Assembly: GCA_949152475.1 (NCBI GenBank)
Contig: OX424559.1
Location: forward strand, 15,531,809 to 15,595,808
Origin: Terebella lapidaria
Taxonomy: Eukaryota; Annelida; Polychaeta; Terebellida; Terebellidae
Length of the DNA stretch: 64,000 bases
Direction of reading: 5' to 3'
In this document: piece by piece, positions 6,952-26,361 of the stretch
How positions within the stretch are numbered: the first letter of the stretch is position 1
Layout: each line of letters opens with the position of its first letter
Notes under the pieces: generated by a model
What the model was told of the DNA's origin: nothing
Seen by the model: the letters and a program-made list of their open reading frames with translations, nothing else
Databases searched by the model: none
Program-made: the position numbers and the translations under genes

Positions 6952-8330
6952 TGTAACGGATTCTTCACCCTTCTGTGACGTCTTGATGAACCGGTTTTCT
7001 TGGGAGGTGGGTGAGTTGTTATTTAACCGGAGCTGAAACGGTAAAACTCCGGGAAACTGCTACTGCTGTACGGTTGAACTCCGGCTAGAAGTCTCTGAAG
7101 GTTGGTAGCGTGGTCTGGAATGGACCTCTTAACCGTTGTCCGACTGCCAATCTGCAACTGCACCTGTAAAGTAAGAATCCGGAGGCGTTTCCGTCTCCGG
7201 GTACTGCAACTGCTCCGTCGGGATACCGCTTTACTGCACCAGCTCCGTCATTTTCCGCCTTACTGCAACTGCGACTGCACCTGGAATAGAGAATCCGGGA
7301 ACGTTGCCGTTTCCGAATACTGCAACCGCTCTGCCAGGTTCCGCCTCACTGCAAACTGCTCCGGTTGGCTCCGCCTCACCGCAACCTGCGACTGCACCTG
7401 AAATGGAGAATCTCGGAAGTGTTCTCACTTCCGGTTACCGCAACCGCTCCGTCAGGTACTGCCTCTGCTACTCCGTCGTCCGGTACCGCCTCTGCAACTG
7501 CTTCGTCGTTCCCGTCTCTGCAACTGTTCCGTCCGGTACCGCCTCCGTAGTTGCTCCGTTGAATTCCACCTCCGTCTCCGTCTCCTTCCTTGGTGATCTG
7601 GGTTCTTGGATCACCCTAAGACGTCGTTACAACTTGGTCTTAACCGACTGTGGACTTATCTCCCTTTTCTCCGTATTACTTTCTTTTCCGGTGAACTAAC
7701 TTTATCATAAATTCCAGTTCCCTAACCAACACGAAAAAACAACTCGGTTGAAGTTTTCATGTTTATTTTCCAAGTGCACAGCCAGAAGGCTTAACTGCTA
7801 TCATCTGGTATGACACAAGCCGGAGTAAGGGAGTACTCTGCTATGGGAGAAGGGGTCTGCACAGGTCGACGTCAGGACACCAACTCCGCCATCCGCTGTG
7901 AAGCGGGGGCTTTTATAGACCTGAGACCCACGTCACGTGACCAACCTATTGTGACGTCATAGTCCGCCAAAACACTGATTTTTCCGGAATTTCCAAAAAC
8001 ATGCTAGAACCAATCAGTGGCTGACACGTCACCTTTTAAACCGAAAACGAGGCTGATCACATGACCTTCCGGAAATAACGTCATTACGTTTTTGTACTCC
8101 ATTGTTCCGACTCCGTCTCCGGTTCCGTCTCCGTCTCCGTCTCCGGCTTTACCAACATCAAAAATATACTAAGTTCCGAGACGGAAAACCTTCTAAATAT
8201 CACCAATACGGAACCGAATGAACCCTTAAACACATACACATTTCAATAAACGGTTATTTAACCGTAATATCACAAAACACTGCTAGAATTACCTAGGGGA
8301 AACTTTTGGGAACACCCCAAAACCGTTACA
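6952..8330 (-). repeat. Element A 3' LTR
   Basis: 1379 bp with TGTAAC...GTTACA ends. It carries the same U3 signals as element B in reverse orientation: TGACGTCA, GTCACGTGAC and TATAAAA (minus-strand reading of about 7912-7960). Unlike the other LTR of A, it keeps the block just downstream of the TATA box. ORFs across it are low-complexity shadows of CCGGA/GGAGC-type repeats. Confidence 0.85.
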
Positions 8331-8610
8331 CTCCCCCTTTCTTAGGCTCTGTTCGTCCCGAACAGATCAATATCACATATCACATATACATAAATTTTTA
8401 ACCGTGAAATTGTCCGTATAATCAAACACAACTGTTTCCGTGATCCGGGTACTGGTATCTCTTAACTAGTTTACGGTCACTGTACCCGGATATCTTGCTT
8501 GTTCCGTTTCCCACTTTTAACTCTTAATTATACTAGAATCTGGGAAACGGTTCTTCTTTCTTCTCCTTGCGCCGACTTGACTTGCGACGACTTGCGGCGA
8601 CTTGCGACGA

Positions 8611-9616
8611 CTACTGCCCACCAGTATCATGGCGCGAACTGCTTCCTGACGGCGGACGAGGTGGAATGGTATTTGGTACCAACGTTACGGTCGTCCGAAG
8701 CTTGTTCCTCTGGCATCAACCGGGAGAAGATCGGGATCATGTAAACTCCACTGGGGTGGCACGTAGAACCCATTCCTAAGGCGTTCGTCCCGGATGGACC
8801 AATCTGGAATCCGGACGATCTGACGGGTTGGGACGAGACCAAACGGTGACTCTCTCTGCTCCATGGTCTCCACGTAGATGCCAGAGTTTCTCATCTCGGC
8901 TGGCCCCCACTGCTCCGGTCCCCAACGTACGGCATAGTATCTGGCATGCTCCGGGACTGCAGGTGCAGAGACGGATGCACTCCGTCCTCCAATATTCACC
9001 GGGAAACAGTGGGACGGACACGGTTGAGTTGAAGGACCGCCAAACGGGTAGAAAGTGTATGGTGGACTCTGGGTTGGTGCTCGGGCTTGGCTCCTTCCGG
9101 ACCGCTCACTGGAAGACTAACGAGGCCTGGTTTCCACCGGAGACAGGATTCCGGGTGTAGCTCTGGCTTGATCTATCAGGATACTCCAGCAGGCTCTCTG
9201 CACGTCCGCATGGCTTCGGTCAGACGCGGAAGACTCCATTCCGTCATCCCTAGGCACTGTACTGGTTCTGCTTCCGGCTACTGCTTGAATGGTTGCCGGT
9301 AAAGTTCTCTCCGTGGATCCTCGGGTCTCCGTCTCACTGTCAGCACTGCTCCTGGTTCCGCCTTCTGCTTTGGTCTCCGCTCTGCCTCCTGATCTGCCAT
9401 CGGGTCTGCTGTCCGCTCGGCTATCTGCTCGGCTATCTGCTCTGCTATCCGCTCTGCTATCTGCTCTGCTATCGGCTCTGCTATCGGCTCTGCTATCTGC
9501 TCTGCTATCTGCTCTGCTATCTGCCTCCGTCGACCGCTACACTGCCTCCGCTTCCACCACACGGCCATCCGCCTCCGTCGACCGCTACACTGCCAACCGC
9601 CTCCGTCTACTGCCAC
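8611..9616 (-). pseudogene. Remnant of accessory ORF3 (C-terminal part)
   Basis: 8685-8999 encodes 104 residues nearly identical to the C-terminal domain of element B ORF3 (HARYYAVRWGPEQWGPAEM, PDWSIRDERLRNGFYVPPQW), and the stop corresponds to 8611-8613. Further upstream the GCAGATAGCAGAG repeat region survives (about 9400-9530) but is read in shifted frames. The N-terminal C2H2 fingers and their promoter are missing. Confidence 0.75.
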
Positions 9617-9841
9617 ACCGCCTCCGCTTCTGCCACCCTGCTTTTACTGCATTTTTCTTCGGGACTGGTGGTCTTCCGGGAAATACTTTGTCATTTTTTT
9701 TTACTGCAAAATCTGCTCTTGCCGGAAAATGCTGGACTTGATTCAATTCCGCCAAACTTTGTCTGCGATGTGCACAGCTCAAGGTCTGCTCTCCAACTGC
9801 TGTCAGAGCCCGATTTCAAGGCCCCTTTATACCCTTTCTGC

Positions 9842-10144
9842 TCACGTGACTTGAAAAGCTCCACGCTGATTGGCTGCCTCAGGAGTGACGTCACAATTAT
9901 GCAAAAACTCAACCGTTAACCGAGAGGTGTCCGTCTCCGGTTCAACCGGCTTCTCCGGGTTTTTTTTCCGGCTCCCTTTCAACTGCTTCTCCGAGCGAAG
10001 TATCTGCAATTTCGAAGTATTTCTGCCATCAGGAGGGTTGAATAGAGTCTCAGCCAGTTGAATCTGCCTGCCAGACGTACATCTAGACTGCAAGTTGGGT
10101 GTTTCCGCCATCTGTACTGCTTCGTCAACTGCATATCTGCTCAC
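9842..10144 (-). CDS. Conserved 100-residue ORF of the element family (copy in A)
   Basis: 100 codons, aligned end to end with the 99-codon ORF at 21183-21482 of element B. They differ at a few residues and by one extra Lys, caused by a run of 8 A versus 5 A, a frame-preserving indel. No domain is recognised. The 3' part coincides with an internal promoter-like block, so the open frame could be fortuitous. Confidence 0.35.
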   Translation of the reverse strand: MSRYAVDEAVQMAETPNLQSRCTSGRQIQLAETLFNPPDGRNTSKLQILRSEKQLKGSRKKNPEKPVEPETDTSRLTVEFLHNCDVTPEAANQRGAFQVT

Positions 10145-10645
10145 TGGTATTACTGCTTGTCGACACTGGAAACTGCATACATTCTGTCCAGGAGGAGGCG
10201 CCTTCCTACCTGGGGTGATGTTTCTCCGTTTCTGTCAATCTGCAGTCGGTTTACTGTCTCTGCTAAGTGGAAACTCCGGTTGGATGTCTACAGCCGGAAA
10301 ACTTTTCCGTCTTAATTCTCCTCATACGGAAGACGTGTAGCTGCTTCTTCTGGAGATTCTAGACCGCTAACCCAGGTTCTTCTGGACCCCTGGCCGCTAC
10401 CCTGGACTGGTTGACTATGCGCTCAACCCAGTCAGAACCTCTAGGATGTCTCTATCCGGTCTCTGCACCCTGTTCCGCTCTACTTCCTTTCTCCGCCCTG
10501 TTTCCGGAACCAGCACTTGCTCACTGTTCCAACTTCTTGCGGTCGCTCTCTGCCGGAACTCAACGTTTTACCAGGGTCTCAGCTATCTCCTTCTCCTGCT
10601 CTACAGCTCACCCCGTCTTCCCATATTTCTTCGTCCTCTGCGGCT

Positions 10646-13119
10646 TTACTCCGAGTCCGTATCCGACTCAGAGACCGTCTGTTCCGACTCCGGAACACTA
10701 CTCTGCTTCGGCGGCTCGGTCTGCCTCCAGGAATCCGCCATTCTCCGCTTCATCCATCTCGGATGCTTGACACCATTATACGGTTTCAGCAAATCGAAGT
10801 GAACCACCTTCTGCCGAGTTTCACTCTCTGCAATCTCGTAGGTCACGTCGGTAAATCTGCTCAGCACTAGCTTTGGACCGCTCCACTTCCTCTGCAACTT
10901 GGGTGCCTTGCCCTTCTTCCGTGTTTTGACCGCCATCCACACTCGGTCTCCTGGCTGGAACTGATTGTCGACCTTCCTCCGGTCATACAGCTTTTTCTGC
11001 CGTTCCATCTCTCTGCCAGATTTCGCTCGAACCGCCTTGTATACTGCTTCTAGTCGCTCCCGGAGCTGACTGCCATACTCTGTTACTTCTGCTGTCGATT
11101 CGCCCGGAGGCCCGCCAATCAGTAACTCTACCGGAGTGTTGACTTCTCTGCCCAGCATCAGCAAATTGGGACTCTGCCCGGTTGTCTCCTGCGGGGTACT
11201 CCGGTAAGCTGCCATCGCCAACGGAACTAGCTGATCCCAGTTGGTCTGCCGCTCGCTTACGTACAGGCTCAGGATCTGCTGCAGCGTCCGGTTGAATCGC
11301 TCAATGAAACCGTTCGACTGAGGTCGGAAAGCGGTTGTCCGTGTCTTGTGAATCCCCAGGATTCTGCAAACATTTCTCAGCAAGTCGGACTCGAAATTTC
11401 TGCCTTGGTCGGTGTGGATCTCCATCGGGATGCCGTACCGCGCTGCAAACTGGTTGACGAATATGTCCGCAACCGTCACCGCTTCCTGATTCGGCATCGG
11501 GTAGGCCTCTACCCACTTGGTGAAGTAATCACCGATTACTAAGATGTACCGGTTCCCCCGGGTGGATTTAGGTAATGGACCCATCACGTCCATTGCCACC
11601 CTCTCCATGGGCGTTCCAACCCGGTATTTCTGCATCGGAGATCGTTTCAAGTTCTGCATACTTCTTGACGCACATTCGTCACAGCTCAGTACCCACTGCT
11701 TTATGTCCCGCATCATAGCCGGCCAGAAATACCGCCTCCGAATGCTAGCCGCCATCCTTCTGCTTCCGAGGTGTCCTCCCGTCCGGCTCTGATGGGCCAG
11801 ACGGAAAATCTCCTGTCTCAGCTCCTTCGGGGTTAATAACTGCATTCGGCTGGTTCCTTTTGCCGTTTTCCATTTCCGATAGACTACTCCGTCGACTTTC
11901 AGCAAGGTCTTCCGCATCCCGTACAGCACTTTCTCCTCGCTGCTCATGCTGGAAAAGTCTGCACTGCCAGCTGTACCGCTCCCGTCGATCAGCGACGTCA
12001 CCAGTGGGTGCCAAGGTTCTGCTTGCTGCATTCTCCGCAAATCATCTGGTCGATATTTGTGCCCCAGCACAGTATCCTGGTCCGCATTTTCCGCCAGCCT
12101 AATCTGCTCTGCAACCGCATTTTCCGCATCCTTCCGTACTGCAACCGGCCTCCGAGAAACAGCTTTCTCTGCATCTGTCTTTTCTGCAACTGCATCCGCT
12201 TTTCCTGGAACTGCCTTCTCCGTCACCGGAACCGCAACCGGCTTCCAGAACACTGCCTTCTCTGCTACTGCAACTGCCTTCCTTGGGACTGCTTTCTCCG
12301 TCACCGCAACCGCAACCGGCTTCCGGGACACTGCCTTTTCCGTCACCGCAACCGCAACCGGCTTCCGGGACACTGCCTTTTCTGTCCCCGCATCCGCAAC
12401 CGGCTTCCGGGACACTGCTTTCTCTGCTACTGCAACTGCCTTCCTTGGGACTGCTTTCTCCGTCACTGCAACCGCAACCGGCTTCCGGGACACTGCCTTT
12501 TCCGTCACCGCAACCGGCTTCCGGGACACTGCTTTCGCTGCTACTGCAACTGCCTTCCTTGGGACTGCTTTCTCCGTCACCGCAACCGCAACCGGCTTCC
12601 GGGACACTGCTTTCTCTGCTACTGCAACTGCCTTCCTTGGGACTGCTTTCTCCGTCACCGCAACCGCAACCGGCTTCCGGGACACTGCCTTTTCCATCAC
12701 CGCAATCGCAACCGGCTTCCGGGACGATGCTTTCTCTGCTACTGCAACTGCCTTCCTTGGGACTGCTTTCTCCGTCACCGCAACCGCAACCGGCTTCCGG
12801 GACACTGCCTTGTCTACTACTGCAACCGCCTCCGCCCCAGTTGGAACCTCCATTGTTTCTGCCAAGTCTGCTTCTCCAGTCGATTTCCGTGACCGCCTCC
12901 GGCGAACCCCCTTCCTTGGATTGAGCTGTGGAGTTTCTTTGCTCCTAATCTGCCGGACAATCCGGGCAATCCGCCATTGCTGCTGCTGTCTTGGGAGTCT
13001 GCAATCCCGGGCAAAATGCCCCTTCTTGCCGCAGTTGAAACACTCCAAATCTGCTCTGGCTCCGCGCTGCTGTTTCCGTGACTGCCTCCGATGTCGGGTC
13101 TGCCGGACAATCCACCGTG

Positions 13120-13150
<31 letters not shown>

Positions 13151-14353
13151 TGGGTGCTGCTGTTGTTGTTGTCGCTGCTGCTGCTGCTGCCGCGGCTGTC
13201 TGCAGTCTCGGGCAAAATGTCCCTTCCGGCCACAGGTAAAGCACTTTGTCAGCGTAAAGAACTTTGGCTCTTGGTCAGCGCTGCTGACTCTGATTGATAA
13301 CCGCCTCCTTGACCTGAGTCATCAGGTCCAACAGCTGCTGCTGCGTTTGCTCCGCCTGCTTCCTCAGCTCGCCTACCTGCTGGCTCCATTCCGGCTCCGC
13401 GTTCAGCTGTATTGTCCGGTGCCGCTCTGCCATCCTACTGCTATCAGTCTTCATAATGCTTTCATACTCGGTGGCGAAAGCCAGAGCCTGCGACAGCGTT
13501 TCTGGATGGCTTTTCAGCACCGACAACCGCATATCTCGGTTAGTAAGACTGTTGCAAAAATGCATCTTCATGAGCACTTCTGTTGTTGCCGGGTCCGCTT
13601 TTGGGTAAGCTAGCCGCGTCTTGCTCCGTATGTCTCTGGCCAGCTCGGACAGCTCCTCCTCCGGCTGCAATTTCCGCGTCTGCAATTCCGCCTGGAAAAC
13701 AAATGTTTTCTCCCCCGGACAAAACTGTTGTTTCAATGCCGCCACAACCGTATCAAAGCTGCATCTCTGCTCCGCGGACAATTCCAGTAGTATGCTGCGG
13801 GCATTACCCCTCAAACTGACACATAAGTTCAGTGCCTTTTCCTCTTCTGTCCAACGGTAGTACCGAGCATATTCAAGGAGGTGAGCCTCATACTCCGACC
13901 ACGGATCAGTTCCGTCGTAGGTCATTAATCTGGCTACTCCTGCCCTTGGGGCTGGTTGTTGTACTGCTTCTGCCTGCTGCTTTCCGGTCACTGCCAGGTG
14001 CTGTTGAAACACCTCCATTTGGGTCGCCAATAATCTGGTCAGGTTGTCGACTAAATTCTCACCGCCTTCCGGTTCTGCATCCGGTTCCCGATCGCCAGCC
14101 TGGTCCGGAAAGTTAATTTCCACCTCTGCTAACTGCTCCGCAGGCTGTACTCCTTGAGGAACCCGAGGGGGCTCTTCTGCAACTGCTTTCTGCATTTCCG
14201 GTTGCAACAGCTTTCGCTCGGCAGGACGAACTGCTTCCTTTCCGCAACCGGCATCTGCAACACCTCAGCTCCAACTGCTCCTGCTGACTGCTCCGTGTCC
14301 GACACGGCTGTCTTCAGCTGCTGTTCCGCCAATTTGCCCCGTCTAGTAGTCAT
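10646..14353 (-). pseudogene. Gag-integrase fusion gene of element A, frameshifted
   Basis: Three segments: start MTTRRGK at 14353; a shift near 14240 into the frame 13275-14207, which carries the capsid region; then, after a stop at 13275, the frame 10646-13048, which begins at a CCHC knuckle (ECFNCGKKGHFARDC) and continues through the repeat linker and integrase. The integrase part is intact, with HHCC zinc site, D-D-35-E core (HTDQG, SNGFIERFNR) and GPY/F-like C-terminus. The linker (about 12190-12830) has more repeat units than B. No protease or RT lies between knuckle and integrase. Confidence 0.85.
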
Positions 14354-14362
14354 ACTGCAGAT

Positions 14363-14381
14363 GATCCCACCGCTGCCACCA
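14363..14381 (-). other. Primer-binding site of element A, leucine-tRNA type
   Basis: The minus strand reads TGGTGGCAGCGGTGGGATC, six bases from the end of the 5' LTR and identical to the site in element B. Confidence 0.7.
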
Positions 14382-14387
14382 AAAAGT

Positions 14388-15703
14388 TGTAACGGGTTCT
14401 TCACCCTTCTGTGAAGTCTTGATGAACCGGTTTTCTTGGGAGGTGGGTGAGTTGTTATTTAACCGGAGCTGAAACGGTAAAACTCTGGGAAACTGCTACT
14501 GCTGTACGGTTGAACTCCGGCTAGAAGTCTCTGAAGGTTGGTAGCGTGGTCTGGAATGGACCTCTTAACCGTTGTCCGACTGCCAATCTGCAACTGCACC
14601 TGTAAAGTAAGAATCTGGAGGCGTTTCCGTCTCCGGGTACTGCAACTGCTCCGTCGGGATACCGCTTTACTGCACCAGCTCCGTCGTTTTCCGCCTTACT
14701 GCAACTGCGACTGCACCTGGAATAGAGAATCCGGGAACGTTGCCGTTTCCGAATACTGCAACCGCTCTGCCAGGTTCCGCCTCACTGCAAACTGCTCCGG
14801 TTGGCTCCGCCTCACCGTAACCTGCGACTGCACCTGAAATGGAGAATCTCGGAAGTGTTCTCACTTCCGGTTACTGCAACCGCTCCGTCAGGTACTGCCT
14901 CTGCTACTCCGTCGTCCGGTACCGCCTCTGCAACTGCTTCGTCGTTCCCGTCTCTGCAACTGCTCCGTCCGGTACCGCCTCCGTAGTTGCTCCGTTGAAT
15001 TCCACCTCCGTCTCCGTCTCCTTCCTTGGTGATCTGGGTTCTTGGATCACCCTAAGACGCCGTTACAACTTGGTCTTAACCGACTGTGGTCTTATCTCCC
15101 TTTTCTCCGTATTACTTTCTTTTCCGGTGAACTAACTTTATCATAAATTCCAGTTCCCTAACCAACACGGAAAAACAACTCGGTTGAAGTTTTCATGTTT
15201 ATTTTCCAAGTGCACAGTCAGAAGACTTAACTGCTATCATCTGGTATGACACAAGCCGGAGCAAGGGAGTACGTCCGCTGTGAAGCGGGGGCTTTTATAG
15301 ACCTGAGACCCACGTCACGTGACCAACCTATTGTGACGTCATAGTCCGCCAAAACACTGATTTTTCCGGAATTTCCAAAAACATGCTAGAACCAATCAGT
15401 GGCTGACACGTCACCTTTTAAACCGAAAACGAGGCTGATCACATGACCTTCCGGAAATAACGTCATTACGTTTTTATACTCCATTGTTCCGGTTCCGTCT
15501 CCGGCTCCGGTTCCGTCTCCGGTTTTACCAACATTGAACTACTCTAAGTTCCAAGGCGGAACATCTTTCTAAAACCATGAATATACAACCGTATGAACCT
15601 TTAAACACATATACGCTTTAATAAACCGTTATTCAACCGTAGTATCGCAAAATATACACGAATTACCTTGGGGAGCTTTTGGGAACACCCCAAAACCGTT
15701 ACA
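14388..15703 (-). repeat. Element A 5' LTR, with an internal deletion
   Basis: 1316 bp against 1379 bp for its partner. Most of the difference is one gap at about 15271, where the block from the CTCTGCTATGGGAG segment to just before the TATA-proximal GTCCGCTGTGAAGC is missing. That block lies right downstream of the TATA box, so the transcription start region of this LTR is gone and the promoter is probably dead. Confidence 0.85.
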
Positions 15704-16028
15704 CTATTGTAACGGTTTTGGGGCGTACCCAAAGGTTTCCCCTAGGTATTTATGTTAGTGTTTTGTGATATTATGGTTAAATAACCGTTTATTAGGGTGT
15801 ATATGTGTTTAAAGGTTCATACGGTTCCGTATTGTTAATGTTTTAAAGGTTTTCCGTCTCGCAACTTAGTAATTTATGATGTTGGTAACGCCGGAGACGG
15901 ATCCGGAGACGGAGACGGAACCGGACACGGAGCCGGAACAATGGAGTACAAAAACGTAATGACGTTATTTCCGGAAGGTCATGTGATCAGCCTCATTTTC
16001 GGTTTAAAAGGTGACGTGTCAGCCACTG

Positions 16029-16132
16029 ATTGGTTCTAGAGTGTTTTTAGAAATCCGGAAAATATCAGTGTTTTGGCGGACTATGACGTCACAATAGGTT
16101 GGTCACGTGACGTGGGTCTCAGGTCTATAAAA
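16029..16132 (+). promoter_or_regulatory. LTR promoter: inverted CCAAT, CRE, E-box, TATA
   Basis: Seen in order: ATTGG (16029-16033), the CRE palindrome TGACGTCA (16084-16091), GTCACGTGAC E-box/USF-type palindrome (16102-16111) and TATAAAA (16126-16132). Spacing fits a pol II core promoter starting about 16155-16160. The same block recurs in the 3' LTR and in both LTRs of element A. The factors that bind are inferred from motif knowledge only. Confidence 0.75.
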
Positions 16133-16274
16133 GCCCCCGCTTCACAGCGGACGGCGGAGTTGGTGTCCTGACGTCGACCTGTGCAGACCCCTTCTCCCTT
16201 AGCAGAGTACTCCCTTGTTCCGGATAGAGTCATCCAGATGATAGCAGTTAAGTCTTCCGACTGTGAACTTGGAA

Positions 16275-16280
16275 AATAAA
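16275..16280 (+). terminator. Polyadenylation signal in the LTR
   Basis: AATAAA about 145 bases downstream of the TATA box, in the place expected for the R-region poly(A) signal. Confidence 0.6.
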
Positions 16281-17101
16281 CATGAAAACTTCAACCGAGT
16301 TGTTTTTCCGTGTTCGTTAGGGAACTGGAAGTTATAATAAAGTTAGTTTCCCGGAAAAGACAGTTATACGGAGTAAAGGGAGATAAGACTACAGTCGGTT
16401 AAGACCAAGTTGTAACGACGTCTTAGGGTGATCTAAGAACCCAGATCACCGAGGAAGGAGTCGGAGACGGAGACGGAGGTGGAAATCAACGGAGCAACTA
16501 CGGAGGCGGTATCGGACGGAGCAGTTGCAGAGACGGGAACGACGAAGCAGTTGCAGAGGCGGTACCGGACGACGGAGTTGCAGAGGCAGTACCTGACGGA
16601 GCGGTTGCGGTAACCGGAAGTGGGAACACTTCCGAGATACTCCATTTCAGGTGCAGTCGCAGGTTGCGGTGAGGCGGAGCCAACCGGAGCAGATTGCAGT
16701 GCGGCGGAACCTGGCAGAGCGGTTGCAGTATTCGGAAACGGCAACGTTCCCGGATTCTTTATTCCAGGCGCAGTCGCAGTTTGCAGTAAGACGGAAAACG
16801 ACGGAGCTGTTGCAGTAAAGCGGTTTCCCGACGGAGCAGTTGCAGTACCCGGAGACGGAAACGCCTCCGGATCCTTACTTTACAGGTGCAGTTGCAGATT
16901 AGCAGTCGGGCAACGGTTAAGAGGTCCATTCCAGACCACGCTACCAACCTTAGAGACTTCTAGCCGGAGTTCAACCGTACAACAGTAGCAGTTTCCCGGA
17001 GTTTTACCGTTTCAGCTCCGGTTAAACAACAACTCACCCACCTCCCTAGAAAATCGGTTCATCAAGACGTCACAGAAGGGTTCGAACCCGTTACAACTTT
17101 T

Positions 17102-17120
17102 TGGTGGCAGCGGTGGGATC
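17102..17120 (+). other. Primer-binding site, leucine-tRNA type
   Basis: TGGTGGCAGCGGTGGGATC lies six bases after the LTR. It complements ...ATCCCACCGCTGCCACCA, which I recognise as the 3' end of a eukaryotic tRNA-Leu. The Gag ATG follows at 17130, leaving almost no leader. Confidence 0.75.
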
Positions 17121-17129
17121 ATCTGCAGT

Positions 17130-20100
17130 ATGACTACTAGACGGGGCAAATTGGCGGAACAGCAGCTGAAGGCAGCCGTGTCGGACACGGAGCAGCCTGT
17201 AGGAGCAGTAGGAGCTGAGCCGTTGCAGATGCCGGTTGCGGAAAAGGAAGCGGTTCGTCCTGCCGAGCGGAAGCTGTTGCAGCCGGAAATGCAGAAAGCA
17301 GTTGCAGACGAGCCCCTCCGGGTTCCTCAAGGAGAACAGCCTGCAGAGCAGTTAGCAGAGGCGGAAGTTAACTTTCCGGACCAGGCTGGCGATCGGGAAC
17401 CGGATGCGGACCCGGAAGGCGGAGAGAACTTAGTCGACAACCTGACCAGATTATTGGCGACCCAAATGGAGGTGTTTCAGCAGCACCTGGCAGTAACCGG
17501 AAAGCAGCAGCAGGCAGAAGCAGTACAACAACCAGCACCAAGGGCAGGAGTAGCCAGATTAATGACGTACGACGGAACTGATCCGTGGCCGGAGTATGAG
17601 GCTCACCTCCTTGAATACGCTCGGTACTACCGTTGGACAGCAGAGGAAAAGGCGCTGAACTTATGTGTCAGTCTGAGGGGTAACGCTCGCAGCATACTAC
17701 TGGATCTGTCCGCGGAGCAGAGACGCAGCTTTGATACGGTTGTGGCGGCATTAAAACAGCAGTTTTGTCCGGGAGAGAAAACATTTGTTTTCCAGGCGGA
17801 ATTGCAGACACGGAAATTGCAGCCGGAGGAGGAGCTGTCCGAGCTGGCCAGAGACATATGGAGCAAGACGCGGCTAGCTTACCCAAAAGCAGATCCGGCA
17901 ACAACAGAAGTGCTCATGAAGATGCATTTCTGCAACAGTCTGACTAACCGAGATATGCGGTTGTCGGTATTGAAAAGCCACCCGGAAACGCTGTCGCAGG
18001 CTCTGGCTTTCGCCACCGAGTATGAAAGCATTATGAAGACTGATAGCAGTAGGACGGCAGAGCGACACCGGACGATACAGCTGAACGCGGAGCCGGAATG
18101 GAGCCAGCAGGTGAACGAATTGCGGAAGCAAGCCGAGCAGACTCAGCAGCAGTTGGCGGATCTGATGACTCAGGTCAAAGAAGCGGTTAGCAGGCAGCAG
18201 CAGCAGCGCAGTTCCCGAGCGGATTTAGAATGCTTTAACTGTGGTCGGAAAGGGCATATTGCCCGAGACTGCAGATTGCCGAGACAACAGCAGCAAAGGC
18301 GGCAACCCCAGCAGCAGCAGCAGCAACAGCAGCAACCACTGCAGCAGCAGCAGAGACAGCAGCAGCAACAGCGGATTGCCCGGATTGTCCGACAGACCCG
18401 AAGTAGTGGAATTCCACAGCCCAAGCCAAGGAAGGGAGGTCGTCGGAGTCAGTCACGGAAACAGCAGCGCCGACCAAGAGCAGATCTGGAGTGTTTTAAC
18501 TGCGGCAGGAGGGGGCATTTCGCCCGAGATTGCAGGCTCCCGAGACCACAGCAGCAATGGCGGCAACCACCGCAGCAGCAGCAGAGACGGCAGCAGCAAC
18601 GATGGATTGTCCGGATTGTCCGGCAGACCCAGAGCAGTGAAACTCCAGAGCCCGAACCAAGGAAGGGGGGACGCCGGAGGCGGTCGCGGAAATCAGCCGG
18701 AGAAGCAGAGCTGGCAGAAGAGGAGTCTCCGGTAAAAGCAGAATCCAAGGCGGTTGCGGTGGCGGAGAAAGCTGTTCCCGGAAGGCCGGTGGCGGTTGCA
18801 GGGAAGGCGGATGCGGAGAAAGCTGTTTCCCGGAAGCCGGTTGCGGTGACGGAGAAAGCAGTCCCAAGGAAGGCAGTTGCAGTAGCAGAGAAAGCAGTGT
18901 CCCGGAAGCCGGTTGCGGTTGCGGTGACAGAGAAAGCAGTGTCCCGGAAGCCGGTTGCGGTTGCGGTGATGGAGAAAGCAGCGTCCCGGAAGCCGGTTGC
19001 GGTTGCGGTGACGGAGAAAGCAGCGTCCCGGAAGCCGGTTGCGGTTGCAGTGACGGAGAAAGCAGCGTCCCGGAAGCCGGTTGCGGTTGCAGTGGCGGAG
19101 AAAGCAGTGTCCCGGAAGCCGGTTGCGGTTGCGGTGACGGAGAAAGCAGCGTCCCGGAAGCCGGTTGCGGTTGCGGTGACGGAGAAGGCAGTTCCAGGAA
19201 AAGCGGATGCGGTTGCAGAGCAGATTAGGCTGGCGGAAAATGCGGACCAGGATACTGTGCTGGGGCAGAAATATCGACCAGATGATTTGCGGAGAATGCA
19301 GCAAGCAGAACCTTGGTACCCACTGGTGACGTCGCTGATCGACGGGAGCGGTACAGCTGGCAGTGCAGACTTTTCCAGCATGAGCAGCGAGGAGAAAGTG
19401 CTGTACGGGATGCGGAAGACCTTGCTGAAAGTCGACGGAGTAGTCTACCGGAAATGGAAAACGGCAGAAGGAACCAGCCGAATGCAGTTAATAACCCCGA
19501 AGGAGCTGAGACAGGAGATTTTCCGTCTGGCCCACCAGAACCGGACGGGAGGACACCTCGGAAGCAGAAGGATGGCGGCTAGCATTCGGAGGCGGTATTT
19601 CTGGCCGGCTATGATGCGGGACATAAAGCAGTGGGTGCTGAGCTGTGACGAATGTGCGTCAAGAAGTATGCAGAACTTGAAACGATCTCCGATGCAGAAA
19701 TACCGGGTTGGAGCGCCCATGGAGAGGGTGGCAATGGACGTGATGGGTCCGTTACCTAAATCCACCCGGGGGAACCGGTACATCTTAGTAATCGGCGATT
19801 ACTTCACCAAGTGGGTAGAGGCTTACCCGATGCCGAATCAGGAAGCGGTGACGGTTGCGGACATATTCGTCAACCAGTTTGCAGCGCGGTACGGTATCCC
19901 GATGGAGATACACACCGACCAAGGCAGAAATTTCGAGTCCGACTTGCTGAGAAATGTTTGCAGAATCCTGGGGATTCACAAGACACGGACAACCGCTTTC
20001 CGACCTCAGTCGGACGGTTTCATTGAGCGATTCAACCGGACGCTGCAGCAGATCTTGAGCCTGTACGTAAGCGAGCGGCAGACCAACTGGGATCAGCTAG

Positions 20101-20681
20101 TTCCGTTGGCGATGGCAGCTTACCGGAGTACCCCGCAGGAGACAACCGGGCAGAGTCCCAACTTGCTGATGCTGGGCAGAGAAGTCAACACTCCGGTAGA
20201 GTTACTGATTGGCAGACCGCCGGGAGAATCAACGGCAGAAGTAACAGAGTATGGCAGTCAGCTCCGGGAGCGACTAGAGGCGGTATACAAGGCGGTTCGA
20301 GCGAAATCTGGCAGAGAAATGGAACGGCAGAAGAAGCTGTACGACCGGAGGAAGGTCAACAATCAGTTCCAGCCAGGAGACCGCGTGTGGATGGCGGTCA
20401 AAACACGGAAGAAGGGCAAAGCTCCCAAGTTGCAGAGGAAGTGGAGCGGTCCAAAGCTAGTGCTGAGCAGATTTACCGACGTGACCTACGAGATTGCAGA
20501 GAGTGAAACTCGACAGAAGGTGGTTCACTTCGATTTGCTGAAACCGTATAATGGCGTCAAGCATCCGAGATGGATGAAGCGGAGAATGGCGGATTCCTGG
20601 AGGCAGACAGAGCCGCCGAAGCAGAGTAGTGTTCCGGAGACGGAACCGACGGTCTCTGAGTCGGATACGGACTCGGAGTAA
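17130..20681 (+). CDS. Gag-integrase fusion polyprotein without protease or RT
   Basis: 1183 residues, one uninterrupted frame starting 10 bases after the primer site. Residues 1-140 are charged and Gln/Glu-rich; about 145-305 are a Gag capsid-type domain (MTYDGTDPWPEYEAHLLEYA start). CCHC knuckles lie at 368-381 and 455-468, with a poly-Gln stretch between. About 545-695 is a repeat linker of VAVxEKAxSRKP units. About 700-800 is the pre-integrase linker seen after RNase H in Ty3/Gypsy Pol. Integrase follows: zinc site H802, H809, C839, C842; catalytic D870, D930, E966 (35 residues between the last two); and a GPY/F-like C-terminus (KWSGPKLVLSRF). The join replaces exactly the PR-RT-RH segment of a normal element. 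Integrase could act on cDNA made by another element's RT; that is inference. Confidence 0.92.
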   Translation: MTTRRGKLAEQQLKAAVSDTEQPVGAVGAEPLQMPVAEKEAVRPAERKLLQPEMQKAVADEPLRVPQGEQPAEQLAEAEVNFPDQAGDREPDADPEGGENLVDNLTRLLATQMEVFQQHLAVTGKQQQAEAVQQPAPRAGVARLMTYDGTDPWPEYEAHLLEYARYYRWTAEEKALNLCVSLRGNARSILLDLSAEQRRSFDTVVAALKQQFCPGEKTFVFQAELQTRKLQPEEELSELARDIWSKTRLAYPKADPATTEVLMKMHFCNSLTNRDMRLSVLKSHPETLSQALAFATEYESIMKTDSSRTAERHRTIQLNAEPEWSQQVNELRKQAEQTQQQLADLMTQVKEAVSRQQQQRSSRADLECFNCGRKGHIARDCRLPRQQQQRRQPQQQQQQQQQPLQQQQRQQQQQRIARIVRQTRSSGIPQPKPRKGGRRSQSRKQQRRPRADLECFNCGRRGHFARDCRLPRPQQQWRQPPQQQQRRQQQRWIVRIVRQTQSSETPEPEPRKGGRRRRSRKSAGEAELAEEESPVKAESKAVAVAEKAVPGRPVAVAGKADAEKAVSRKPVAVTEKAVPRKAVAVAEKAVSRKPVAVAVTEKAVSRKPVAVAVMEKAASRKPVAVAVTEKAASRKPVAVAVTEKAASRKPVAVAVAEKAVSRKPVAVAVTEKAASRKPVAVAVTEKAVPGKADAVAEQIRLAENADQDTVLGQKYRPDDLRRMQQAEPWYPLVTSLIDGSGTAGSADFSSMSSEEKVLYGMRKTLLKVDGVVYRKWKTAEGTSRMQLITPKELRQEIFRLAHQNRTGGHLGSRRMAASIRRRYFWPAMMRDIKQWVLSCDECASRSMQNLKRSPMQKYRVGAPMERVAMDVMGPLPKSTRGNRYILVIGDYFTKWVEAYPMPNQEAVTVADIFVNQFAARYGIPMEIHTDQGRNFESDLLRNVCRILGIHKTRTTAFRPQSDGFIERFNRTLQQILSLYVSERQTNWDQLVPLAMAAYRSTPQETTGQSPNLLMLGREVNTPVELLIGRPPGESTAEVTEYGSQLRERLEAVYKAVRAKSGREMERQKKLYDRRKVNNQFQPGDRVWMAVKTRKKGKAPKLQRKWSGPKLVLSRFTDVTYEIAESETRQKVVHFDLLKPYNGVKHPRWMKRRMADSWRQTEPPKQSSVPETEPTVSESDTDSE
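18755..19215 (+). repeat. Coding minisatellite in the Gag-integrase linker
   Basis: Units of mostly 42 bases encode VAVAVxEKAxSRKP. About ten variable units are present; element A has a longer version on its minus strand (about 12190-12830). Unit lengths are multiples of three, so expansion keeps the frame. The encoded peptide is basic and Ala/Val-rich, probably an unstructured tether or nucleic-acid-binding tail. Confidence 0.8.
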
Positions 20682-21182
20682 AGCCGCAGAGGACGCAGAA
20701 ATATTAGAAGACGGAGTGAGCTGTAGAGCAGGAGAAGGAGATAGCTGAGACCCTGGTAAAACGTTGAGTTCCGGCAGAGAGCGACCGCAAGAAGTTGGAA
20801 CAGTGAGCAAGTGCTGGTTCCGGAAACAGGGCGGAGAAAGGAAGCAGAGCGGAAAGCGGTGCAGAGACCGGATAGAGACATCCTTGAGGTTCTGACTGGT
20901 TTGAGCGCATAGTCAACCAGTCCAGGGTAGCGGCCAGGGGTCCAGAAGAACCTGGGTTAGCGGTCTAGTATCTCCAGAGAAGCAGCTACACGTCTTCCGT
21001 ATTCAGAGAATTAAGACGGAAAAGTTTTCCGGCTGTAGACATCCAACCGGAGTTTCCACTTAGCAGAGACAGCAAACCGGCTGCAGATCGACAGAAGCGG
21101 TGAAACATCATTCCAGATAGGAAGGGCCCTCCTTCTGGACAAGAATGTATGCAGTTTCCAGTGTCGACAAGCAGTAATACCA
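20682..21182 (+). other. Spacer after Gag-integrase; no gene seen
   Basis: About 500 bases with no supported ORF and no clear AATAAA. It is conserved in element A (about 10145-10645), so it belongs to the family. It could hold a 3' UTR or terminator, but nothing visible proves that. Confidence 0.45.
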
Positions 21183-21482
21183 GTGAGCAGATATGCAGTT
21201 GACGAAGCAGTACAGATGGCGGAAACGCCCAACTTGCAGTCTAGATGTTCGTCTGAGAGGCAGATTCAACTGGCTGAGACTCTTTTCAACCCTCCTGATG
21301 GCAGAGATACTTCAAAATTGCAGATACTTCGCTCGGAGAAGCAGTTGAAAGGGAGCCGGAAAAACCCGGAGAAGCCGGTTGAGCCGGAGACGGACACCTC
21401 TCGGTTAACGGTTGAGTTTTTGCATAATTGTGACGTCACTCCTGAGGCAGCCAATCAGCATGGAGCTTTTCAAATCACGTGA
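21183..21482 (+). CDS. Conserved 99-residue ORF, function unknown
   Basis: Matches the 100-residue ORF at 9842-10144 of element A with few substitutions and a frame-keeping 3-base indel, which hints at coding constraint. It is hydrophilic, with no transmembrane segment or known motif. Its last third overlaps the promoter-like block for ORF2, so conservation might instead reflect that DNA. Confidence 0.35.
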   Translation: MSRYAVDEAVQMAETPNLQSRCSSERQIQLAETLFNPPDGRDTSKLQILRSEKQLKGSRKNPEKPVEPETDTSRLTVEFLHNCDVTPEAANQHGAFQIT

Positions 21483-21744: not shown

Positions 21745-22521
21745 ATGGCCTACTCGGCGTTCCTTGATAGACAAGATCGCGGCCGGAGCAGAGATTGGGC
21801 AACCCCGCAGTCACCGGATTATAGCCGGCTGCCACTGGATTATAGCCGGCTGTGTAAGCGGTGTGACCGGATGTTTGAGAGTGCGAGGGACCGGAGACGG
21901 CATGTGTGCCCAGCCCAGAGATTTCATTGCTGTTTGTGTGCCTTCTATGCCAACCGGGCGAACGACCTTAGGAGGCATCTCCGGGAGATGCACGGGTGGA
22001 AGTACCCTTCCGGGAACCGTCCTCCTCAGGACGAGGCCACCCTCAACCATGTGGGAACCTTTGATTCGGCCTGGCGGGGAACAGCAACGCAGTCCCGGCA
22101 TAAGCGTTTCCGGCGATACTGCACCCGGTCACCAAGGGAGAATACAGTTCCGGGAACTTATGCGGACCAGCTTCCGTTTGGCCCTGACTGGGATGCCGGA
22201 GCAGCCGCCCCCATCGGACAACCGGAGCAGTTAGATCTCCAGGAATGGGTTCCGGATCCACAAGGCTGTCTCCGGGCCGCCGACGACGCTCCTCCGGAAA
22301 GCTGGGATCAGGAGATGGAGCTGATTGCAGAGGCGGTCAGAGCAGTTATGCCGGATCAAGCAGAGAAACCCGAAGAGGAAGATCAGCCGGTGGAAGACTG
22401 GGAGGCAGAGATCCGGGTGTGGGAATATCGACCACCTTCTCCCACTTCGGAGCCGGAGACGGAGGAGTCGGAGTATGAGACGGCAGATGAGGACTCCTGG
22501 ACGGAAGCGAAGGCAGTGTGA
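21745..22521 (+). CDS. Accessory ORF2: two-finger C2H2-type zinc-finger protein
   Basis: 258 residues. Finger 1 is C37-x2-C40-x12-H53-x-C55, a variant ending in Cys; finger 2 is C62-x2-C65-x12-H78-x4-H83 (FHCCLCAFYANRANDLRRHL). The C-terminal half is acidic and Pro/Glu-rich (about 205-255), resembling an activation-type or disordered tail. It follows its own CCAAT/E-box/TATA block and precedes ORF3 on the same strand. A nucleic-acid-binding role, perhaps regulating the element or guiding its complex, is inferred. The copy in element A is deleted. I know no standard retroelement protein like it. Confidence 0.8.
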   Translation: MAYSAFLDRQDRGRSRDWATPQSPDYSRLPLDYSRLCKRCDRMFESARDRRRHVCPAQRFHCCLCAFYANRANDLRRHLREMHGWKYPSGNRPPQDEATLNHVGTFDSAWRGTATQSRHKRFRRYCTRSPRENTVPGTYADQLPFGPDWDAGAAAPIGQPEQLDLQEWVPDPQGCLRAADDAPPESWDQEMELIAEAVRAVMPDQAEKPEEEDQPVEDWEAEIRVWEYRPPSPTSEPETEESEYETADEDSWTEAKAV

Positions 22522-22616: not shown

Positions 22617-22617
<1 letters not shown>

Positions 22618-22656: not shown

Positions 22657-22659
<3 letters not shown>

Positions 22660-22834: not shown

Positions 22835-24694
22835 ATGCCGAAAGTAAAGACAACACCCCGCAAGCCCCGCCCTCACCGGTGTGGAGACTGCAACCAAGAG
22901 TTCAAGAGCAAGCACACGTTGCTCCGGCATGTCACGGAGCAGCACACAAGTGAAGTCACCGTCTTCGCCTGTCCGCAGTGTGACCATTGGAGCAGACGGA
23001 AAGAGGGAACACAGAAGCATCTGCAGTCCCGGCACGCAATGGACGCAAACCCGATTCGACTGAGGGTGGGCAGAGAGCAGTTTGAGGAGAAAAGCCTCCG
23101 GTCCAAGATGACCCCACGGAAAAGCAAGAAGCCGGTAACACGGCATGACCAGTTGTCGGATACGGAGTCGGAGTCGGGAGGTTCGGTTTCGTCCCGGACC
23201 CGGTACCGTTCCGGTACCCAGTCGGTGGCCGCACTAGCAGCCGACGTTTCGTCCACGGAGGCGGAGAGCAGTTCGGAAGAGGAAGCGGAGCTGAAAATCA
23301 TGGCAAGTGAAGACGAGTTGCAAGAACCAGGAGACCCGAAGCCGGTTAAGCCGCCTGTGACCCGGAGTTCTTCCCGGAACACCTCCCGGAAAAACAGCCC
23401 TGACTCATCTCGAGGTACCGGAGCAGATCGAGACCGCGGAAAGAAGCGGAGTCGCAGCCGTTCGCCGGATAATTCCGGACGCCATCAACGCCGAGAATAT
23501 AGGAAAGAGAGCCCGGAGCGAGCCAAGGACCGAGGCGGAGAACGTGGTCGAGAGGAGAAACGACACACCCCACCCAAGTCTTCCGGAGGCAGCGTCAAAG
23601 GAAAAGGCAAGGGGGTGTATGACTACAAGTTCCGGCTGTTGGAGGAAGGTTCCGGCGGAGCAACGGCAGAAGTGGGAGTGGCAGACATTGCGGAATTGCA
23701 GAGCCGAGACGATGAGGAAGACCTTTTCCGGAGTCCACCTCCGAGAACAACTAGCAGTGGCAGAGCAGTGAGCAGTGTGATTGTCCGGCCCGGAGGCGGA
23801 GCAGAAATCAGATCCAGCGGCCGAGCCGATAGCAGAGCAGATAGCCGAGTCGATAGCAGAGCAGATAGAGCAGATAGCAGAGCAGATAGCCGAGCGGACA
23901 GCAGACCCATTGGCAGATCGGGAGGCAGACCAGAGACCAAAACGGAAGGCGGAAACCGGAGCAGAGCTGGCAGTGAGACGGAGACCCGAGGATCCACGGA
24001 GCGAACTTTGCCGGCAACCATTCAAGCAGTAGCAGGAAGCAGAACCAGTTCAGCGGCTAGAGATGACGGAATGGAGTCTTCCACGTCTGAACGAAGCCAT
24101 GCGGACGTGCAGAGAGCCCGGAGGAGTATCCTGGTAGATCAAGCCAGAGCTACACCCGGAATCCTGTCTCCGGTGGAGACCCGGCCTCGACAGTCTTCCA
24201 GTGATCGGTCCGGAAGGAGCCAAGTCCGAGCACCAACCCAGAGTCCACCCTACACCTTCTACCCGTTTGGCGGTCCTTCAACTCAACCGTGTCCGTCCCA
24301 TTGTTTCCCGGTGAATATTGGGGGACGGAGCGCTTCCGTCTTTGCACCCGCGGTCCCGGAGCACGCCAGATACTATGCAGTACGTTGGGGACCGGAGCAG
24401 TGGGGGCCAGCCGAGATGAGAGACTCCGGCGTCTACGTGGAGATCATGGAGCAGAGAGAGTCACCGTTTGGTCTCGTCCCGACCCGTCAGATCGTCCGGA
24501 TTCCAGATTGGTCCATCCGGGACGAACGCCTCAGGAATGGATTCTACGTCCCGCCCCAGTGGAGCCTCCATGATCCGGATCTTCTCCCGGTTGATGCCAG
24601 AGGGACAAGCTTCGGACGACCGTTGGTACCACAGACCTTTCCACCGCGTCCGCCGTCGGGGAGCAGTTCGCGCCGTGATACTGGTGGGCAGTAG
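22835..24694 (+). CDS. Accessory ORF3: C2H2 zinc-finger protein with long disordered middle
   Basis: 619 residues. Two standard fingers at the N-terminus: C16-x2-C19-x12-H32-x4-H37 and C46-x2-C49-x12-H62-x4-H67. Residues about 85-500 are Ser/Arg/Glu-rich and low in hydrophobics, with SR/RS clusters (about 170-250) and an ADSR repeat (about 327-360). The last 110 residues form a compact, aromatic-rich domain (HARYYAVRWGPEQWGP...) that is also preserved in element A. Stop at 24692-24694. The fingers suggest DNA or RNA binding; the C-terminal domain is unrecognised. Position between integrase and polypurine tract is where LTR elements carry env or accessory genes, but I see no signal peptide or membrane segment. 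Confidence 0.82.
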   Translation: MPKVKTTPRKPRPHRCGDCNQEFKSKHTLLRHVTEQHTSEVTVFACPQCDHWSRRKEGTQKHLQSRHAMDANPIRLRVGREQFEEKSLRSKMTPRKSKKPVTRHDQLSDTESESGGSVSSRTRYRSGTQSVAALAADVSSTEAESSSEEEAELKIMASEDELQEPGDPKPVKPPVTRSSSRNTSRKNSPDSSRGTGADRDRGKKRSRSRSPDNSGRHQRREYRKESPERAKDRGGERGREEKRHTPPKSSGGSVKGKGKGVYDYKFRLLEEGSGGATAEVGVADIAELQSRDDEEDLFRSPPPRTTSSGRAVSSVIVRPGGGAEIRSSGRADSRADSRVDSRADRADSRADSRADSRPIGRSGGRPETKTEGGNRSRAGSETETRGSTERTLPATIQAVAGSRTSSAARDDGMESSTSERSHADVQRARRSILVDQARATPGILSPVETRPRQSSSDRSGRSQVRAPTQSPPYTFYPFGGPSTQPCPSHCFPVNIGGRSASVFAPAVPEHARYYAVRWGPEQWGPAEMRDSGVYVEIMEQRESPFGLVPTRQIVRIPDWSIRDERLRNGFYVPPQWSLHDPDLLPVDARGTSFGRPLVPQTFPPRPPSGSSSRRDTGGQ

Positions 24695-24969: not shown

Positions 24970-26357
24970 TGTAACGGTTTTGGGGCGTACCCAAAGGTTT
25001 CCCCTAGGTATTTATGTTAGTGTTTTGTGATATTATGGTTAAATAACCGTTTATTAGGGTGTATATGTGTTTAAAGGTTCATACGGTTCCGTATTGTTAA
25101 TGTTTTAAAGGTTTTCCGTCTCGCAACTTAGTAATTTATGATGTTGGTAACGCCGGAGACGGATCCGGAGACGGAGACGGAACCGGACACGGAGCCGGAA
25201 CAATGGAGTACAAAAACGTAATGACGTTATTTCCGGAAGGTCATGTGATCAGCCTCATTTTCGGTTTAAAAGGTGACGTGTCAGCCACTGATTGGTTCTA
25301 GAGTGTTTTTAGAAATCCGGAAAATATCAGTGTTTTGGCGGACTATGACGTCACAATAGGTTGGTCACGTGACGTGGGTCTCAGGTCTATAAAAGCCCCC
25401 GCTTCACAGCGGACGGCGGAGTTGGTGTCCTGACGTCGACCTGTGCAGACCCCTTCTCCCTTAGCAGAGTACTCCCTTGTTCCGGATAGAGTCATCCAGA
25501 TGATAGCAGTTAAGTCTTCCGACTGTGAACTTGGAAAATAAACATGAAAACTTCAACCGAGTTGTTTTTCCGTGTTCGTTAGGGAACTGGAAGTTATAAT
25601 AAAGTTAGTTTCCCGGAAAAGACAGTTATACGGAGTAAAGGGAGATAAGACTACAGTCGGTTAAGACCAAGTTGTAACGACGTCTTAGGGTGATCTAAGA
25701 ACCCAGATCACCGAGGAAGGAGTCGGAGACGGAGACGGAGGTGGAAATCAACGGAGCAACTACGGAGGCGGTATCGGACGGAGCAGTTGCAGAGACGGGA
25801 ACGACGAAGCAGTTGCAGAGGCGGTACCGGACGACGGAGTTGCAGAGGCAGTACCTGACGGAGCGGTTGCGGTAACCGGAAGTGGGAACACTTCCGAGAT
25901 ACTCCATTTCAGGTGCAGTCGCAGGTTGCGGTGAGGCGGAGCCAACCGGAGCAGATTGCAGTGCGGCGGAACCTGGCAGAGCGGTTGCAGTATTCGGAAA
26001 CGGCAACGTTCCCGGATTCTTTATTCCAGGCGCAGTCGCAGTTTGCAGTAAGACGGAAAACGACGGAGCTGTTGCAGTAAAGCGGTTTCCCGACGGAGCA
26101 GTTGCAGTACCCGGAGACGGAAACGCCTCCGGATCCTTACTTTACAGGTGCAGTTGCAGATTAGCAGTCGGGCAACGGTTAAGAGGTCCATTCCAGACCA
26201 CGCTACCAACCTTAGAGACTTCTAGCCGGAGTTCAACCGTACAACAGTAGCAGTTTCCCGGAGTTTTACCGTTTCAGCTCCGGTTAAACAACAACTCACC
26301 CACCTCCCTAGAAAATCGGTTCATCAAGACGTCACAGAAGGGTTCGAACCCGTTACA
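24970..26357 (+). repeat. Element B 3' LTR
   Basis: 1388 bp; every segment I compared with 15708-17095 was identical, including the incidental ORFs and the promoter motifs. Followed by CTAT, the target duplication. Confidence 0.9.
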
Positions 26358-26361
26358 CTAT

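What the first reader, a model, noticed from the sequence alone, without database searches (positions are those of the whole stretch)
17130..20681. LTR element family whose polyprotein joins Gag directly to integrase, with no protease, RT or RNase H
The sequence shows one 1183-residue frame: capsid, two CCHC knuckles, repeat linker, then a complete integrase (H802, H809, C839, C842; D870, D930, E966). In Ty3/Gypsy elements PR-RT-RH lies between nucleocapsid and integrase; here that part is cleanly absent, while the pre-integrase linker is retained. Element A has the same arrangement despite independent damage, so the structure predates both insertions and has been propagated. B has perfect-looking LTRs and a target duplication, so it moved recently through reverse transcription by an enzyme it does not encode. 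Non-autonomous elements usually lose integrase too; one keeping Gag and integrase while dropping RT is unusual.
Basis: partly seen in the sequence, partly recalled or inferred. Interest (0 to 1): 0.88.

Follow-up and report, generated by a model that had tools for sequence, protein, structure and literature searches.

The report
RT-less Gag-integrase LTR element with helper
A jumping element in this genome has lost its own copying enzyme but still encodes its shell protein fused to its integrase, and its copies have spread and swapped pieces with complete sister elements that could supply the missing enzymes.

Summary
B (15708-26357) has identical 1388-bp LTRs, a 4-bp target duplication and one 1183-aa Gag-integrase frame; profiles find no protease, RT or RNase H in the window. 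The arrangement is not confined to A and B: 39 scored loci (B included) plus A carry it, and seven zinc/catalytic residues of integrase are intact in 40 of 40. In eight read, integrase is 98.4-99.5% and Gag (seen in seven) 95-98% identical to B's; one LTR is 99.5% identical. The short form is thus an internal-deletion allele of an ordinary Ty3/Gypsy element, joining Gag in frame to integrase. A private core in 40 of 40 short and 0 of 8 complete copies points to one origin. Gag and integrase trees mix both forms, and a second deletion occurs in both, so they recombine. Helper enzymes in trans are the best explanation (inferred). Low N/S of Gag and integrase cannot be credited to the short form; its private core shows constraint too (0.37, biased sample). 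Semi-autonomous elements I read about keep Gag or Gag-protease; Gag-integrase looks like a new variant.

The parts
15708..17095 (+). 5' LTR of B, 1388 bp, identical to the 3' LTR
   Evidence: 99.5% identical over 1339 bp to the 5' LTR of one complete sister (L057, upstream of L054)
15704..15707 (.). 4-bp target duplication CTAT, left copy (also the gap between A and B)
17096..17118 (+). spacer ACTTTT and primer-binding site TGGTGGCAGCGGTGGGA (tRNA-Leu recalled)
   Evidence: leader 97-99% identical in 7 of 8 complete sisters, no hit in L051
17130..20681 (+). Gag-integrase fusion ORF, 1183 aa
17412..18224 (+). Gag part tested for selection (residues 95-365)
18225..18710 (+). two CCHC knuckles, each followed by the deletion junction (duplication at 231-bp spacing)
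   Evidence: repeat D18
18455..18760 (+). core block private to the Gag-integrase form: found in 40 of 40 short copies and 0 of 8 complete copies
   Evidence: N/S ratio 0.37 for residues 443-560
18831..19250 (+). 14-residue (42-bp) repeat linker
19488..20678 (+). integrase (H2C2 finger, D59D35E core, C-terminal domain)
21745..22521 (+). ORF2, 258 aa, C2H2-like fingers
   Evidence: weak; ratio 0.22, 6 of 10 copies
22835..24694 (+). ORF3, 619 aa, C2H2-like fingers, RS-rich, conserved C-terminus
   Evidence: weak; no relative among the 7990 candidates scored
24958..24969 (+). polypurine tract AGGAAGGGGGAG
24970..26357 (+). 3' LTR of B
26358..26361 (.). 4-bp target duplication CTAT, right copy
6952..15703 (-). 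element A, older copy of the same form: LTRs 14388-15703 and 6952-8330, Gag and integrase in different frames, ORF2 and front of ORF3 deleted

Best explanation
B is a semi-autonomous internal-deletion allele of an ordinary Ty3/Gypsy retrotransposon. One ancestral deletion removed PR-RT-RH and joined the glutamine-rich tail of Gag in frame to the linker before integrase; a second knuckle was gained by duplication. Shown: a sister form with PR-RT-RH exists at 36 scored loci, and in the eight read its integrase, and in seven its Gag and leader, are nearly those of B; a private core is shared by 40 of 40 short copies; short and complete forms share Gag, integrase and ORF2/3 variants. Inferred: both RNAs enter the same particle, the sister's protease and RT act in trans, and template switching during reverse transcription keeps refreshing the short form's flanks. 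Because the fusion needs no frameshift, it may make integrase at Gag level; whether that helps or hinders the particle is unknown.
For: No PR/RT/RH in the window at E<=1 or in the 3' parts of 8 further copies at E<=0.1. PR-RT-RH-IN sister at 36 scored loci, 32 without an in-frame stop in the matched part; PR DTG, RT YLDD and integrase triad intact in 8 of 8 read. Gag 95.2-98.3% (7 of 8), integrase 98.4-99.5% (8 of 8), leader 97-99% (7 of 8) identical; one LTR 99.5%. Five of 5 further short copies tested have LTR pairs with 0, 0, 1, 1, 5 mismatches, 4 of 5 a perfect 4-bp duplication, while their LTRs differ from B's by about 1-2%: pairs regenerated together. Private core in 40 of 40 short, 0 of 8 complete copies; the same join, by eye, in 33 of 33 readable of 40. 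Trees mix the forms: 6 label changes for Gag (shuffled mean 6.7), 8 for integrase (7.5-7.6). All four combinations of two structural alleles are present.
Against: No RNA or protein data: co-packaging, trans-supply and the fusion protein are inferred. Mixed trees could also come from gene conversion between genomic copies. Only 8 of 36 complete copies were read; well-supported branches alone force at least 3 label changes in each tree, and many forks are weak. For Gag only 1 of 40 short copies is nearest to a complete copy (15 of 40 for integrase), and nine short copies, A and B among them, form a Gag group without complete copies. L051 shows no Gag in the stretch held and L056 has an early stop in Gag. 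Copies were chosen by protein similarity to B, so broken copies are under-represented and totals are unknown.
Confidence: 0.87

Rival explanations
1. The short copies are retrotransposed spliced RNAs of the complete element (PR-RT-RH left out as an intron), arising repeatedly.
For: The missing part lies cleanly between two coding parts and the frame is restored.
Against: The 40 short copies share a private core absent from 8 of 8 complete copies, and the piece beside the junction is only about 77-79% identical to the complete form while Gag is about 95% and the integrase part 96-99% (six complete copies): one old event, not recurrent splicing. The left breakpoint lies in CAG repeats; I saw no clear splice donor by eye; no splice-site program was run.
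Confidence: 0.05
2. The Gag-integrase protein is itself selected: a stoichiometric integrase supplier (or interferer) rather than a passenger deletion.
For: N/S ratio 0.37 in the private core (38 copies; 0.36 with all 40), which the complete form as read cannot refresh, with in-frame stops there in 1 of 40; at least 23 of 40 fusions uninterrupted; the nine-copy Gag group made of short copies keeps a ratio of 0.18, 0.30 without A and L045.
Against: Copies were picked by protein score, which lowers N/S; pairs are not independent; some linkers look as if taken from the complete form (L005, L030, L035, L042, by eye); counting distinct variants gives weaker ratios (Gag 0.29, integrase 0.37; not done for the core).
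Confidence: 0.35
3. A bipartite system in which the complementary half (PR-RT-RH without Gag and IN) is a separate element.
For: None found.
Against: The helper found carries PR-RT-RH-IN in 8 of 8 and Gag in 7 of 8 read. The query held integrase, so a PR-RT-RH-only element would have scored lower and may have been missed.
Confidence: 0.03
4. The ancestor had integrase before RT (Gmr1-like order, recalled) and the short form lost a terminal RT.
For: One distant hit, P0001, reads PR-IN-RT (by eye).
Against: Of the 120 nearest listed integrase proteins 83 are PR-RT-RH-IN, 27 RT-RH-IN and none IN-RT; the genome's own sister has RT before IN in 8 of 8.
Confidence: 0.01

Closest known systems
Semi-autonomous RLG_Sabrina_SA of wheat (PMC9744471, passages read)
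   Same: Non-autonomous Ty3/Gypsy element that keeps an intact structural ORF and is thought to be moved by a partner with the same primer site and LTR start.
   Different: Keeps Gag and protease, lacks RT and IN; partner has hardly any sequence homology. Here Gag and IN are kept, in one frame, and the partner is nearly identical.
RLG_Quinta with RLG_Cereba, einkorn wheat (PMC11302176, passages read)
   Same: Deletion-derived partner of an autonomous Gypsy element, thought to contribute Gag; shared LTR ends and primer site.
   Different: Lost both RT and IN, encodes Gag plus DUF1; Gag strongly diverged.
Non-autonomous Fatima, wheat (PMC3129301, passages read)
   Same: Non-autonomous partner with 91% identical LTRs.
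   Different: Keeps Gag and protease; internal regions mostly dissimilar to the autonomous form.
Recombining LTR families: ONSEN (PMC5668417, abstract read) and grass centromeric CR elements (PMC4079200, passages read)
   Same: Recombination between family members, with co-packaging and template switching proposed; most CR2-Sb-B members lack or truncate RT and IN.
   Different: No Gag-integrase fusion in what I read.
Ty3/Gypsy relatives P0013-P0018 and P0020 (protein database, organisms unnamed)
   Same: Integrases 63-67% identical to B's; sister group to the window's two.
   Different: RT and/or RNase H precede integrase in all seven (three are truncated at the front).

Membership tests
Ty3/Gypsy LTR retrotransposon | Integrase with H2C2 finger and DD35E core of Ty3/Gypsy type | tested here: met
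   (Ty3 polyprotein 1.1e-27; PFV integrase 4.6e-28)
Ty3/Gypsy LTR retrotransposon | PR-RT-RH-IN order in pol | tested here: not met
   Not met by B itself; met by the sister form in 8 of 8 read. B is filed as a deletion derivative of a member, not as a complete member.
Ty3/Gypsy LTR retrotransposon | TG...CA LTRs, primer site, polypurine tract, short target duplication | tested here: met
   identity of the primer tRNA recalled only
Semi-autonomous LTR retrotransposon | Lacks RT but keeps an intact structural ORF | tested here: met
   (at least 23 of 40 open)
Semi-autonomous LTR retrotransposon | Autonomous partner with the same LTR ends and primer site in the same genome | tested here: met
   (full LTR compared for one sister only)
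Semi-autonomous LTR retrotransposon | Both forms recently active | tested here: inconclusive
   Short form recent; LTR pairs of complete copies were not fetched, only their open frames seen
Semi-autonomous LTR retrotransposon | Mobilised in trans by the partner | not testable with these tools
   Needs RNA, particle or insertion data
TRIM / LARD | No coding capacity | tested here: not met
   three open frames
Gmr1-like element | Integrase before RT | tested here: not met

The most novel reading that the evidence does not exclude
The Gag-integrase fusion is a working, selected product: a particle-building protein that carries integrase into every particle without frameshifting, kept as a balanced structural allele of a freely recombining retroelement population, so that one family divides labour between a copier and an integrase-rich packer.
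Probability: 0.3. Interest if true: 0.68.

Novelty: new variant of a known kind. Interest (0 to 1): 0.5.

Why it matters
Non-autonomous partners in the papers I read have lost RT and integrase together. Here a defined deletion keeps Gag and integrase in one frame, is found in many recent copies beside a near-identical complete sister, and shares flanking variants with it. That gives a natural test of whether integrase is needed in cis, what Gag-to-integrase ratio a particle tolerates, and how recombination keeps structural alleles of a mobile element alive.

Tried and rejected
Gmr1-like ancestry was suggested by the best hit of the first protein search (P0001; 7986 candidates scored, 12 hits); a search with residues 740-1150 alone and the genome's own sister rejected it.

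DNA transposition by the fusion, without RT, was rejected: LTR pairs within an element differ at 0-5 sites while LTRs of those copies differ from B's by about 1-2%.

I first read the low N/S of Gag (0.14) and integrase (0.16) as selection on the short form; the mixed trees show that this cannot be concluded.

ORF3 C-terminal structure: AlphaFold mean pLDDT 44.5, not used. ORF3 found no relative among the 7990 candidates scored, and its best match to P0111 is one finger-like stretch of 36 residues. A pair of complete elements on C17 was checked as a parallel to the A/B contact; their LTR ends are 228 bp apart, so it is not one. Genome-wide counts by LTR or pattern could not be had: the machine was busy at each try.

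Literature: ten answered searches of the paper library. In the lists shown (at most 20 titles each, of up to 734 papers) I recognised no Gag-plus-integrase element without RT; few of those papers were opened and most subscription journals are not held, so this is weak evidence of absence.
Full report
What is there. B is a full LTR element on the + strand, 15708-26357: LTRs of 1388 bp, identical to each other, with TGTAACGG...CCGTTACA tips, flanked by CTAT on both sides. After the 5' LTR come ACTTTT and TGGTGGCAGCGGTGGGA, which I recall as the complement of a tRNA-Leu end (not tested). The first frame, 17130-20681, is 1183 aa with two CCHC knuckles, a 14-residue repeat linker and a complete integrase. 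Two more frames follow: ORF2 (258 aa) and ORF3 (619 aa), with C2H2-like fingers that Pfam scores only below its cut-offs. ORF3 had no relative among the 7990 candidates scored from a database of about 5.8 billion proteins. Element A, in opposite orientation, is an older copy: its LTRs differ at 56 of 1316 aligned sites, and its Gag and integrase lie in different frames.

No hidden RT. Profiles for PR, RT, RH and IN were built from those of the 120 nearest listed proteins that covered the domain (50, 99, 109 and 119; P0019 left out) and run over six frames of the window. Only the two integrases matched; nothing for PR, RT or RH reached E<=1. The same test on the 3' parts of eight other copies (L009-L016), from integrase end onward, gave nothing for PR, RT or RH at E<=0.1. 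Among the 120 relatives the order is PR-RT-RH-IN in 83, RT-RH-IN in 27, RH-IN in 7, and three odd pieces. One of those, P0071 (a Patiria miniata gene model), reads knuckle, PR, short RH remnant, IN, without RT. So the ancestor was conventional.

A propagated form. A search of the window's own genome (761.6 Mb, 438 contigs) with the fusion scored 39 of 12165 first-look candidates. Its 67 matches fall, by my grouping, into 39 loci in which Gag and integrase matches abut, with no room for PR-RT-RH. With A this makes 40. All 40 have at least 90% of the Gag and integrase codons tested. The seven zinc and catalytic residues are present in 40 of 40, and at least 23 of 40 fusions are uninterrupted by a motif test (two called interrupted, L019 and L047, have frames of 1249 and 1099 aa and may be misjudged). 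The sample favours intact copies, because ranking was by protein score; A itself was not in the list.

Recent movement through RNA. Five further copies with both LTRs in hand have 0, 0, 1, 1 and 5 mismatches between their LTRs; four of the five have perfect 4-bp target duplications and the fifth differs at one base. Their LTRs differ from B's by about 1-2%, so each pair was regenerated together.

The helper. A search with the relative P0013 scored 36 of 14281 candidates; its 51 matches fall, by my grouping, at 36 loci with frames of 1357-1415 aa, 32 of them with no in-frame stop in the matched part. Eight were fetched (L049-L056). Their integrase is 98.4-99.5% and their Gag 95.2-98.3% identical to B's (Gag and leader seen in 7 of 8; L051 gave no hit), and the leader with primer site is 97-99%. 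PR DTG, RT YLDD and the integrase triad are intact in 8 of 8. The 5' LTR of one, L054, is 99.5% identical to B's over 1339 bp. In 7 of 7 examined, pol lies one base back from the Gag frame; the two overlap in six, and in the seventh, L056, Gag has an early stop. These elements would thus make integrase only after a -1 shift or equivalent (inferred), whereas the short form joins it to Gag directly.

One origin. At the DNA level B follows the complete form to the glutamine-rich end of Gag, then jumps to the linker between RNase H and integrase; in six complete copies compared, the piece beside the junction is only about 77-79% identical while Gag is about 95% and the integrase part 96-99%. The block with the second knuckle and second junction was found in 40 of 40 short and 0 of 8 complete copies. 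In one search, 33 of 40 copies could be read across the junction (7 lacked the search string); by eye all 33 carry the same join. Thirty show two knuckle starts (the pattern checks only the first residues; L017 has lost its first knuckle's histidine), L027 a damaged second, L029 and A one. The deletion therefore looks like a single event, older than the present Gag and integrase sequences around it.

Free exchange. In trees, complete and short copies are mixed: 6 label changes for Gag (39 short, 7 complete; L044 and L051 dropped) against 6.7 for shuffled labels, and 8 for integrase (40 and 8) against 7.5-7.6; well-supported branches alone force at least 3 in each. Mean difference between short and complete copies (integrase 1.48%, Gag 2.64%) is no larger than among short copies (1.75%, 2.78%). 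For integrase, 15 of 40 short copies are strictly nearest to a complete copy and 5 tie; for Gag only 1 of 40. Not all is mixed: nine short copies, B and A among them, form a Gag group of their own (100/99). A second structural allele gives an independent test. A deletion of ORF2 and the front of ORF3, with left end at 969-1101 and right end at 3110-3115 after the stop and a retained island at 1821-1884 or 1821-1906, occurs in short copies A, L003 and L005 (L006 has a like deletion without the island) and in complete copies L049-L052. It is absent from short B, L002, L007 and L014 (and L004 and L008 as far as held) and from complete L053-L056 as far as held, about 1.5 kb; L015 and L016 have other, smaller losses. 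Twelve short and eight complete loci were compared. All four combinations exist, which, if each deletion arose once, needs recombination. Co-packaging with template switching is the usual explanation (PMC5668417, abstract; PMC4079200, passages); gene conversion in the genome is not excluded.

What selection says. N/S against a neutral expectation with the same substitution spectrum: Gag 0.14, linker 0.39 (18 of 40 copies), integrase 0.16; by distinct variants 0.29 and 0.37 for Gag and integrase. Because both are exchanged with the complete form, this does not show that the short form needs integrase. The private core was not seen in the complete form; its ratio is 0.37 in 38 copies, with stops in 1 of 40. 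ORF2 (0.22, 6 of 10 copies) and ORF3 (0.14, 0.27, 0.11 in three parts; 5, 7 and 10 of 10 copies) are constrained too, while an overlapping frame over ORF2 gives 1.27. Copies lacking ORF2, L003/L010 and L005/L011, have identical LTRs and so moved recently without it. The sample bias towards intact copies applies to these ratios.

Mechanism. Best supported: a semi-autonomous deletion allele, co-packaged and copied by its complete sister's RT, possibly over-supplying integrase fused to Gag. Deletion, potential helper and exchange are shown; co-packaging, trans-supply and the fusion protein are inferred. Compared with wheat Sabrina, Quinta and Fatima (passages read), which keep Gag or Gag-protease, the retained pair Gag plus integrase in one frame is the new point.

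Noticed in passing
window 15690-15712: B's end lies exactly at A's outer LTR edge, head to head, with only the 4-bp CTAT between them; A has no matching duplication on its other side (CATA versus CTAT).
   Followed up: partly
window 22835-24694: ORF3: C2H2-like fingers, RS-rich middle, conserved C-terminus, in the env position of a Ty3/Gypsy element, no relatives found; carried at least in part by both short and complete forms.
   Followed up: partly
L049-L052 and A, L003, L005: Shared complex deletion of ORF2 and the front of ORF3 with a retained island of about 62-86 bp.
   Followed up: yes
P0071 (Patiria miniata gene model): Gag knuckle, protease and integrase with only a short RNase H remnant: possibly a similar RT-less arrangement, or an artefact of gene prediction.
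   Followed up: no
P0001: Distant hit with integrase before RT (PR-IN-RT order, read by eye).
   Followed up: no
G000 C17:27856700-27857700 (L058): Two complete elements lie tail to tail, LTR ends 228 bp apart.
   Followed up: partly
window 49770-50987: Array of a 34-bp unit (28 in-register matches of a 300-base reference).
   Followed up: no
window 54668-56056: Four in-register copies at 363-bp spacing, 100% identical over the 300 bases compared.
   Followed up: no
window 38186-38827: P-element-like transposase fragment (Pfam PF12017, just above its cut-off).
   Followed up: no
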